DNA of 33,067 nucleotides from Candidatus Cloacimonadota bacterium. Lineage in GTDB: Bacteria; Cloacimonadota; Cloacimonadia; Cloacimonadales; Cloacimonadaceae. The notes beneath the pieces are model-generated. The model was not told the DNA's origin. It did no database searches and was given only the letters and a program-made list of their open reading frames with translations. The position numbers and the translations under genes were made by a program. This document shows, one piece after another, positions 30,808-32,120 of this stretch. The stretch is from assembly GCA_029565535.1 (NCBI GenBank), contig JAKQNZ010000026.1, positions 1 through 33,067 on the forward strand, in the 5' to 3' direction. The first letter of the stretch is position 1. Every line of letters begins with the position of its first letter.

Positions 30808-30923
30808 CATATTGTAATACAATGCGTCACCAAAAGTTTCAAATGCGTATCAATCGTCACAGTAGTGATAAAACTTTGATTGGTAGAGAGATATTGTAGC
30901 ACTGGCTTAAGAGCTTGTGCGAG

Positions 30924-30987: not shown

Positions 30988-31076
30988 GAGTCCCGTCAGG
31001 GACGGTAGTTAAGATGAGCATAAGTCTCAGTCTGATAGTGAATAGCGCATCTAGAATGCCGCCCCTGACGGGACTC
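30988..31076. repeat. 18-bp inverted repeat GAGTCCCGTCAGGGACGG
   Basis: Left arm 30988-31005 and right arm 31059-31076 are complementary at 17 of 18 positions, 53 bases apart. Each arm also holds its own small dyad (GTCCC..GGGAC). This resembles a REP/BIME pair; the family could not be named from here. Confidence 0.8.
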
Positions 31077-31240
31077 AAAACACGATACTCCATTTCACAG
31101 GTGTAGTACTCGCACCAGCTCTGTAGCGAGTGGTACCAAATATACAACAGTCTTAAAGTATAATAGTTAAGTTATAGTTAAGTATAAAAGTTAAGGTTTT
31201 CTTTGGTTGTTCTTCCCTGCTTAAAGGTGTCTATTAAGTC

Positions 31241-31295
31241 TTTATCTCCCCTTAATCAAGTCTTAATTATTAACGCTTGATTAAGGGGGGATAAA
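31241..31295. repeat. 20-bp inverted repeat with 15-base loop
   Basis: 31241-31260 (TTTATCTCCCCTTAATCAAG) and 31276-31295 are complementary at 19 of 20 positions around the loop 'tcttaattattaacg'. No T run follows. It would form a strong cruciform or RNA hairpin. Confidence 0.85.
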
Positions 31296-31356
31296 GATGT
31301 GATTAAGGTGTTCAAGCAAGAGAGGAAAGGGTTGAAAAGTCGTGGAGTTGGAAGGC

Positions 31357-31498: not shown

Positions 31499-31607
31499 CT
31501 AGTGTTGTGTCAAAACTTGTATGTCGCAAGCATCATTGGGGTGGCAATCTCCCGATTGCCACAAGCCGATCGGGAGATCGGCTTCCCTATGCTTGACATG
31601 ACACTAG
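31499..31607. mobile_element. 109-bp MITE-like element with 15-bp terminal inverted repeats
   Basis: The left end CTAGTGTTGTGTCAA (31499-31513) and the right end TTGACATGACACTAG (31593-31607) are complementary at 13 of 15 positions. No coding sequence lies inside. The centre is two abutting 22-bp palindromes with 9-base arms and 4-base loops (31541-31562 and 31563-31584). The ends recall insertion-sequence termini, so it may be moved by a transposase elsewhere. No target-site duplication beyond the CTAG ends could be identified. Confidence 0.55.
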
Positions 31608-31757: not shown

Positions 31758-32120
31758 ATGCAAAAGCGAAGCTATATTACGATAATTCTGGGGGTGATAC
31801 TGGTAATTCTGTGTTTTGCATTCATGTTTCGGTCTGCGATCCTCAGTCCGTCGGGCATAATCGGCCTGGCGTTGATCTACACAGGCTGGAAAAGAGACCG
31901 CAAGGCGATGGTGATTCTGGGTCATGCCTGCGTTGTAGTGGGGGCGTATCTAATTACCTGGGGTTTGTATTTGCTGCCGGTCAGCACTCCCAGCCTCCTG
32001 GGAATCATCGGAAAGCCGCTGTTCTGGGGTTTGTTTTGCCTGTTTGGAGGGATCTGCGCCATATTCCACGGTTTTTGCTCCTGTGTGCGCAATTTCAGTT
32101 GTGGTAAAACTTCCGGCTGA
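31758..32120 (+). CDS. Small membrane protein of unknown function
   Basis: A 120-residue protein with about four hydrophobic segments ('YITIILGVILVILCFAFMF', 'SPSGIIGLALIYTGW', 'MVILGHACVVVGAYLITWGLYLL' and 'LFWGLFCLFGGICAIFHGF') and a short Cys-containing tail ('CSCVRNFSCG'). No family was recognised. An AGAGGAG ribosome site lies seven bases before ATG 31758, and a promoter is predicted upstream, so it is probably a real gene expressed alone. The three or four cysteines at the end could bind metal or be chance. Confidence 0.6.
   Translation: MQKRSYITIILGVILVILCFAFMFRSAILSPSGIIGLALIYTGWKRDRKAMVILGHACVVVGAYLITWGLYLLPVSTPSLLGIIGKPLFWGLFCLFGGICAIFHGFCSCVRNFSCGKTSG

What the first reader, a model, noticed from the sequence alone, without database searches (positions are those of the whole stretch)
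31499..31607. 109-bp MITE-like element whose core is two abutting, mutually complementary palindromes
The terminal inverted repeats match at 13 of 15 positions. Inside, hairpin 31541-31562 (loop TCCC) touches hairpin 31563-31584 (loop GGGA) with no gap, each 9-4-9. Their loops plus inner stem (ATCTCCCGAT and ATCGGGAGAT) are exact reverse complements, so the element can fold as two hairpins, one long hairpin, or a kissing-loop pair. Such a switchable core is unusual for a simple MITE.
Basis: seen in the sequence. Interest (0 to 1): 0.6.

Follow-up and report, generated by a model that had tools for sequence, protein, structure and literature searches.

The report
Miniature transposon carrying a REP pair
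This 109-base repeat is a tiny, gene-less transposon of the IS630 type whose core is a back-to-back pair of REP palindromes, repeats normally spread by a different enzyme (RAYT), and in a sister species the same palindromes serve as landing sites for a third kind of mobile DNA, a group II intron.

Summary
In detail: 109 bp, CTAG to CTAG, TIRs matching 13/15, two perfect 9-4-9 hairpins abutting with no gap. Four near-identical copies lie in the genome, and many more in a sister species, Cloacimonetes bacterium UBA6081. It is a real MITE. Its ends match complete IS630-family elements in the same family of bacteria, and a paralogous empty site in UBA6081 shows duplication of TA within CTAG.

The core is not an invention of the MITE. 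The hairpins are a REP and an inverted REP (a REPIN-like doublet). The same palindromes flank REP-associated tyrosine transposase (RAYT) genes in UBA6081 and in another genus, and they occur without MITE ends elsewhere. Stems covary strongly while the loops stay TCCN/NGGA, so the loop complementarity follows from the inverted pairing. A regulatory 'switch' is neither shown nor needed.

In UBA6081, a group IIC-like intron has inserted directly after these hairpins at most of its sites. In the window's genome the related intron uses other hairpins, the only RAYT found is broken, and no matching IS630 transposase was found. Verdict: a hybrid of known kinds (IS630 MITE plus REPIN) that also acts as an intron target in a relative.

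The parts
31500..31501 (.). left TA, one copy of the duplicated target dinucleotide (inside CTAG)
   Evidence: TA at both ends in 32 of 38 distinct element sites, mostly CTAG; filled/empty pair in UBA6081 shows TA duplicated
31499..31513 (+). left terminal inverted repeat (with target TA)
   Evidence: matches at 13/15 the right end; same kind of terminus in IS630 elements L266 and L268
31514..31527 (+). left subterminal stretch resembling the left end of the IS630 element (CTTG-ATGTCGCA)
   Evidence: sequence comparison with L149/L265/L268 ends, e.g. TAGTGTCATGTCAAGCTTGACATGTCGCA
31538..31540 (+). GGG head of the first REP
   Evidence: GGG precedes most palindromes of this class, including those beside RAYT genes
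31541..31562 (+). H1 = REP palindrome GTGGCAATC-TCCC-GATTGCCAC
   Evidence: 97% over 33 bp with a palindrome beside the UBA6081 RAYT gene; stem covariation
31550..31553 (+). TCCC loop of H1
   Evidence: TCCN loop conserved in the class
31563..31584 (-). H2 = inverted REP, AAGCCGATC-TCCC-GATCGGCTT on the minus strand
   Evidence: same H1...H2 order and orientation as the REPINs on both sides of the RAYT gene in G010; stem covariation
31572..31575 (+). GGGA loop of H2
31585..31587 (-). CCC, head (GGG on the minus strand) of the inverted REP; the group II intron insertion point in UBA6081 homologues lies here
   Evidence: junctions
31593..31607 (-). right terminal inverted repeat (with target TA)
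   Evidence: ATGCTTGACATGACACTA, shared with the right end of IS630 elements (ATGCTTGACGAGACACTA in L268)
31605..31606 (.). right TA, second copy of the duplicated target dinucleotide

Best explanation
The element is a non-autonomous miniature transposon of the IS630 (Tc1/mariner-like) family that has captured a REP doublet. Its ends are cut and pasted into TA, usually within CTAG, by an IS630 transposase acting in trans (inferred from shared ends and TA duplication). Its core is a REP plus an inverted REP (a REPIN with no spacer), the DNA hairpin substrate normally associated with a RAYT-type single-strand transposase. The hairpins ride along inside the MITE and were spread by the DDE transposase. 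In the sister species UBA6081 the same hairpins, wherever the MITE has placed them, are used as target hairpins by a group IIC-like retro-intron. The complementarity of the two loops is a by-product of one REP unit present in two orientations. In the window's genome the four copies look like passive residents with no visible helper, probably influencing neighbours only as structured intergenic DNA or 3'-UTR RNA.
For: IS630 side: elements in other genera of the same family with these ends (L268 about 1206 bp, L266 about 1207 bp) encode an IS630 transposase; L268 matches NF033545 and DDE_3. TIR pattern hits: 61+64 in UBA6081 against 3+2 for the reversed control, and 8 in G000, which are exactly the ends of the 4 MITEs. 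TA at both ends in 32/38 sites; one paralogous empty site, 94% identical flanks, single TA against duplicated TA. REP side: UBA6081 gene L155:800-1480 scores 85 bits on NF047646 'REP-associated tyrosine transposase' (cut-off 80) and is flanked on both sides by the same palindromes. In G010 the RAYT is flanked on both sides by full REPINs whose two REPs match that genome's own MITE at 100% over 29 bp and 90% over 30 bp. TCCN-loop palindromes flank RAYT genes in 9 of 24 loci examined (30 hairpins) against 1 in 90 kb of control loci. The same doublets occur without MITE ends (G046), and the same MITE ends occur with quite different palindromes inside. Stems covary, 0/500 shuffles. Intron side: in UBA6081, 8 of 9 distinct 5' junctions and at least 13 of 16 distinct 3' exons are MITE sequence immediately after a REP hairpin; a full-length relative in G005 encodes an RT closest to group IIC enzymes.
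Against: No matching IS630 transposase and only a broken, distant RAYT in the window's own genome, so no helper is shown there (assembly 97% complete, 234 contigs). The only empty site is in a relative. These REPs lack the GTAG tag of classical RAYT-linked REPs. None of the four copies in the window's genome carries an intron. Copies cut by NN assembly gaps in UBA6081 limit counts.
Confidence: 0.87

Rival explanations
1. A plain IS630 MITE whose two palindromes arose inside it (for strand pairing or transposition efficiency) and later leaked out; no REP origin.
For: The hairpins are by far most frequent inside MITE copies in UBA6081.
Against: The same doublet exists in G046, which has no such TIRs; palindromes of this class flank RAYT genes in several genera, with sequence specific to each genome; MITEs with the same ends carry other palindromes.
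Confidence: 0.07
2. A structured RNA switch or kissing-loop regulator carried by a mobile element: transcribed with neighbouring genes and toggling between two hairpins and one long hairpin.
For: Two RNA folds within 2 kcal/mol; loops complementary, G-U allowed, in 98.6% of cells; two of four G000 copies sit at stop codons, so transcription into 3' UTRs is plausible.
Against: Loop covariation is weak and expected from inverted paralogous REPs; no Rfam match above its gathering score, no promoter or terminator above chance; unrelated flanking genes.
Confidence: 0.05
3. Intrinsic terminator cassette: the hairpins act as bidirectional terminators, which would also explain the group IIC intron preference.
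For: Group IIC introns are known to insert after terminator hairpins (PMC3898094).
Against: No run of T after either hairpin; the flanks are CCC/GGG.
Confidence: 0.03

Closest known systems
IS630/Tc1-mariner family MITEs (for example Nezha in cyanobacteria; its IS630 affiliation from memory, PMC3733652 lists it as a bacterial MITE)
   Same: short, no coding capacity, TIRs shared with a full element, TA duplication within CTAG
   Different: interior is a REP doublet; TIR ends have a consistent TG/CA asymmetry in most copies; no helper found in this genome
REPINs / BIMEs with RAYT (Bertels and Rainey, PMC3116915; Nunvar et al., PMC2817692)
   Same: inverted pair of palindromic units matching the palindromes on either side of a RAYT gene; compensatory changes in stems
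   Different: GGG head and TCCN loop instead of the GTAG tag; zero spacer; enclosed in DDE-transposon ends
GTAG/CGTC REP superfamilies (PMC3733652)
   Same: 20-40 bp palindromes with a conserved head at one end, often paired in opposite orientation
   Different: neither GTAG nor CGTC tag; lineage (Cloacimonadota) not named in the passages read
REP palindromes as insertion targets (PMC1525189) and group IIC introns targeting hairpins (PMC3898094, PMC7923331)
   Same: mobile DNA with high selectivity for palindromes; group IIC inserts just 3' of a hairpin
   Different: here the hairpin is a REP already inside a MITE; the hits of the searches made named no such case

Membership tests
IS630-family MITE | TIRs shared with a full-length IS630 element | tested here: met
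   L266 and L268 carry the same kind of ends; L268 encodes NF033545/DDE_3
IS630-family MITE | TA target duplication | tested here: met
   32/38 sites with TA at both ends; one filled/empty pair in UBA6081; not shown for the window copy itself
IS630-family MITE | multiple copies at unrelated loci, no coding capacity | tested here: met
   4 copies in G000, many in UBA6081
IS630-family MITE | helper transposase available in the same genome | tested here: not met
   no match in G000 and no extra TIRs; the assembly is incomplete, and a helper may be lost after amplification
REPIN (RAYT-associated REP doublet) | two REP palindromes in inverted orientation | tested here: met
   H1/H2 with opposite loops, 18 distinct doublets aligned
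REPIN (RAYT-associated REP doublet) | same REP flanks a RAYT gene | tested here: met
   met in UBA6081 and G010; not in the window's own genome, whose only RAYT is broken and lacks these palindromes
GTAG REP superfamily | GTAG tetranucleotide at one end | tested here: not met
   head is GGG
REPIN (RAYT-associated REP doublet) | mobilised by RAYT | not testable with these tools
   needs biochemistry or population sequencing
group IIC intron target hairpin | intron inserted directly 3' of the hairpin | tested here: met
   UBA6081: 8/9 5' junctions, at least 13/16 3' exons; not met for the four copies in the window's genome
group IIC intron target hairpin | intron RT belongs to class C | tested here: met
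   best solved relative GsI-IIC RT (6ar1), 1e-56, ahead of LtrA, 1e-37, measured on the G005 relative of the intron; no class phylogeny was made
intrinsic terminator | U-tract after the hairpin | tested here: not met

The most novel reading that the evidence does not exclude
A dual-drive element: one short DNA that two unrelated enzymes can move, a DDE transposase at its ends and a RAYT at its core. REPINs of different genera would repeatedly enter IS630 MITEs (at least in this genus and in G010), so that MITE amplification seeds the genome with landing pads later colonised by group IIC introns.
Probability: 0.2. Interest if true: 0.72.

Novelty: new variant of a known kind. Interest (0 to 1): 0.5.

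Why it matters
REP palindromes are usually explained as products of RAYT activity alone. Here they sit inside the ends of a cut-and-paste transposon and appear to have been spread by it, which offers another route for REP dispersal and could explain REPs in genomes with no working RAYT, such as this one. It also links a third mobile class, since group IIC introns use the dispersed hairpins as sites in a sister species. The palindromes look like a REP class with a GGG head and TCCN loop, tied to RAYT genes across this Cloacimonadota family, which gives defined substrates for testing how RAYTs recognise REPs.

Tried and rejected
RNA switch: folded both ways and counted loop pairs; possible but unsupported. 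Known RNA family: only weak miRNA models below their gathering scores, none over this element. Terminator or promoter: none above chance. Phage or plasmid origin: no DNA match in the phage and plasmid collections, and no exact pattern match in viral contigs. 47-96 bp 'short copies' in UBA6081: mostly assembly gaps (NN) at the palindromes, discarded. The MITE upstream of the homologue of the window's small membrane protein gene in UBA6081 (L149) looked like a shared old insertion, but the spacers between MITE and gene show no similarity beyond chance. RAYTs elsewhere in the genus were checked for these palindromes and lack them, except in UBA6081.

Full report
What is there. The element at 31499-31607 is as described: 109 bp, CTAG at both ends, inverted termini matching at 13 of 15 positions, and two perfect 9-4-9 hairpins back to back. 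A genome search found three more copies at 99%, 98% and 95% identity with unrelated flanks, so the borders are real. The related sequences come from Cloacimonadota: G003 is Cloacimonetes bacterium UBA6081 and G007 is Candidatus Cloacimonadota STF1_13, both in the same genus as the window's genome.

The ends belong to IS630. The terminal pattern TAGTGTYRTGTCAA (one mismatch allowed) occurs 8 times in the window's genome, exactly the eight ends of the four copies, and 61+64 times in UBA6081 against 3+2 for the reversed control. In other genera of the same family, elements of about 1.2 kb (L266, L268) begin and end with these termini and encode a transposase, split over two overlapping frames; that of L268 matches NCBIfam transpos_IS630 and Pfam HTH_32/DDE_3. 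32 of 38 distinct complete sites have TA at both ends, most often within CTAG. In UBA6081 one copy has a 94% identical paralogous stretch without the element; the empty site reads CTAG with one TA, the filled one has TA on both sides. So the TA dinucleotides are target duplications, and this is an IS630-type MITE. In the window's genome two copies abut stop codons: the TAG of the terminal CTAG is the stop of a ferritin-like gene and of an XdhC-like gene (gene names from reading the ORFs, not scanned against a family library), as expected if insertion into the TA of a TAG stop preserves the stop.

The core is a REP doublet. In UBA6081 the same palindromes lie on both sides of a gene (L155:800-1480) that scores above the curated cut-off for REP-associated tyrosine transposase, NF047646. 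The window's H1 matches one of them at 97% over 33 bp. In G010, a different genus, the closest relative of that RAYT is flanked on both sides by complete inverted doublets in the order GGGG-H1-spacer-H2-CCC, and those two units match the interior of that genome's own MITE (L097) at 100% over 29 bp and 90% over 30 bp. Across 24 RAYT loci of the family, 30 hairpins with a TCCN loop were found in nine loci, against 1 in 90 kb of control loci. Doublets with the same anatomy occur without the MITE termini (G046, whose genome has no such TIRs), and MITEs with the same termini carry unrelated palindromes, for example TTCCCGCGGAGGCGGGAA. Ends and core are therefore separate modules.

Structure and covariation. 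Among 18 distinct doublets, 95.5% of stem cells pair, nine pairs change on both sides, and none of 500 shuffles reaches these values; sliding the partners destroys the signal. The search for doublets allowed gaps of 0-3 bases, and the gap between hairpins was zero in every one found. The loops stay TCCN and NGGA. The commonest pair in relatives is TCCT/GGGA, a G-U wobble; only one doublet (G010, TCCG/CGGA) changes both sides relative to the commonest pair, and 17-28 of 500 shuffles do as well. The loops' complementarity is thus what an inverted pair of one REP would give. The element can fold in two nearly equal ways as RNA (-54.8 and -52.8 kcal/mol), but as DNA the two-hairpin form is clearly favoured (-33.7 against -25.7). 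A switch is possible, not supported.

A third mobile element uses the hairpins. Many UBA6081 copies end at contig borders inside a group II intron. The 5' junctions read GATTGCCACCC|GTGCGCC... or GATTGGCTTCC|GTGCGCC..., directly after a REP hairpin, in 8 of 9 distinct cases (with loci grouped by hand); of 16 distinct 3' exons, 13 are clearly MITE sequence and one more probably is. Joined, the exons restore the MITE sequence with nothing duplicated, and intron-free copies are the empty sites. A full-length relative in G005 (1872 bp, also after a hairpin) encodes a reverse transcriptase closest to GsI-IIC and other IIC maturases. Group IIC introns are known to need a hairpin upstream of the insertion point (PMC3898094, PMC7923331). 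The window's genome holds at least fifteen related introns; the junctions examined lie after other palindromes (TGCCAGCG...CGCTGGCATTC|), not in the MITE.

How it most likely works. Shown: MITE anatomy, IS630 termini, TA duplication in a relative, REP identity by anatomy and RAYT flanking, stem conservation, intron targeting in a relative. Inferred: movement in trans by an IS630 transposase; entry of a REPIN into the MITE ancestor; passive state of the four copies here, since no matching IS630 gene and only a RAYT with in-frame stops were found in this genome. Not shown: any effect on neighbouring genes.

Comparison with what is known. As a MITE it meets the tested criteria except for a resident helper. 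As a REPIN it meets the doublet and RAYT-flank criteria in relatives, but it is not a GTAG REP. It works like both; the combination is what is unusual. The literature searches returned REPs as IS targets (PMC1525189) and group IIC introns in attC sites (PMC7923331); no title or abstract seen there reports REPs inside MITEs, or group II introns in RAYT-type REPs. That is weak evidence of absence, since the library holds only open papers and few were opened.

Noticed in passing
window 31207-31337: AT-rich imperfect inverted repeat (CTCCCCTTAATC...GATTAAGGGGG) that matches many places in all nine genomes of the genus, on both strands: another dispersed palindromic family.
   Followed up: no
window 30990-31078: Inverted repeat GAGTCCCGTCAGGGACGG ... 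CCGCCCCTGACGGGACTC with a long loop, between the ABC-permease-like gene and the MITE.
   Followed up: no
window 30817-30908: Stretch with an 86% identical copy elsewhere in the genome (G000:C50:13959-14049); possibly another repeat.
   Followed up: no
L149:1937-2387: The UBA6081 homologue of the window's small membrane protein gene (31758-32120) also has a REP-MITE about 100 bp upstream, in the same orientation; the spacers are not similar, so independent or very old insertions.
   Followed up: partly
L209, L213, L216 and others (G000): At least 15 group II introns in the window's genome; the junctions examined follow TGCCAGCG-AGA-CGCTGGCA-type hairpins, another palindromic repeat family used as intron targets.
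   Followed up: partly
L002:1501-1609 and L003:1501-1609: Two of the four genomic copies abut the end of a gene, with the TAG of the element's CTAG end serving as its stop codon.
   Followed up: partly
L268:239-1401, L266: IS630 transposase encoded in two overlapping frames (165 and 239 aa), suggesting programmed frameshifting.
   Followed up: no
L297, L305, L295, L292: RAYT genes in other genera are flanked by other palindrome arrays with NGGA/TCCN or GGGG loops (for example AGCGTAAGC-GGGG-ACGCTTACGAT; GCCAGAGGAT-TCCG-ATCCTCTGCC): possibly one broad REP class.
   Followed up: partly
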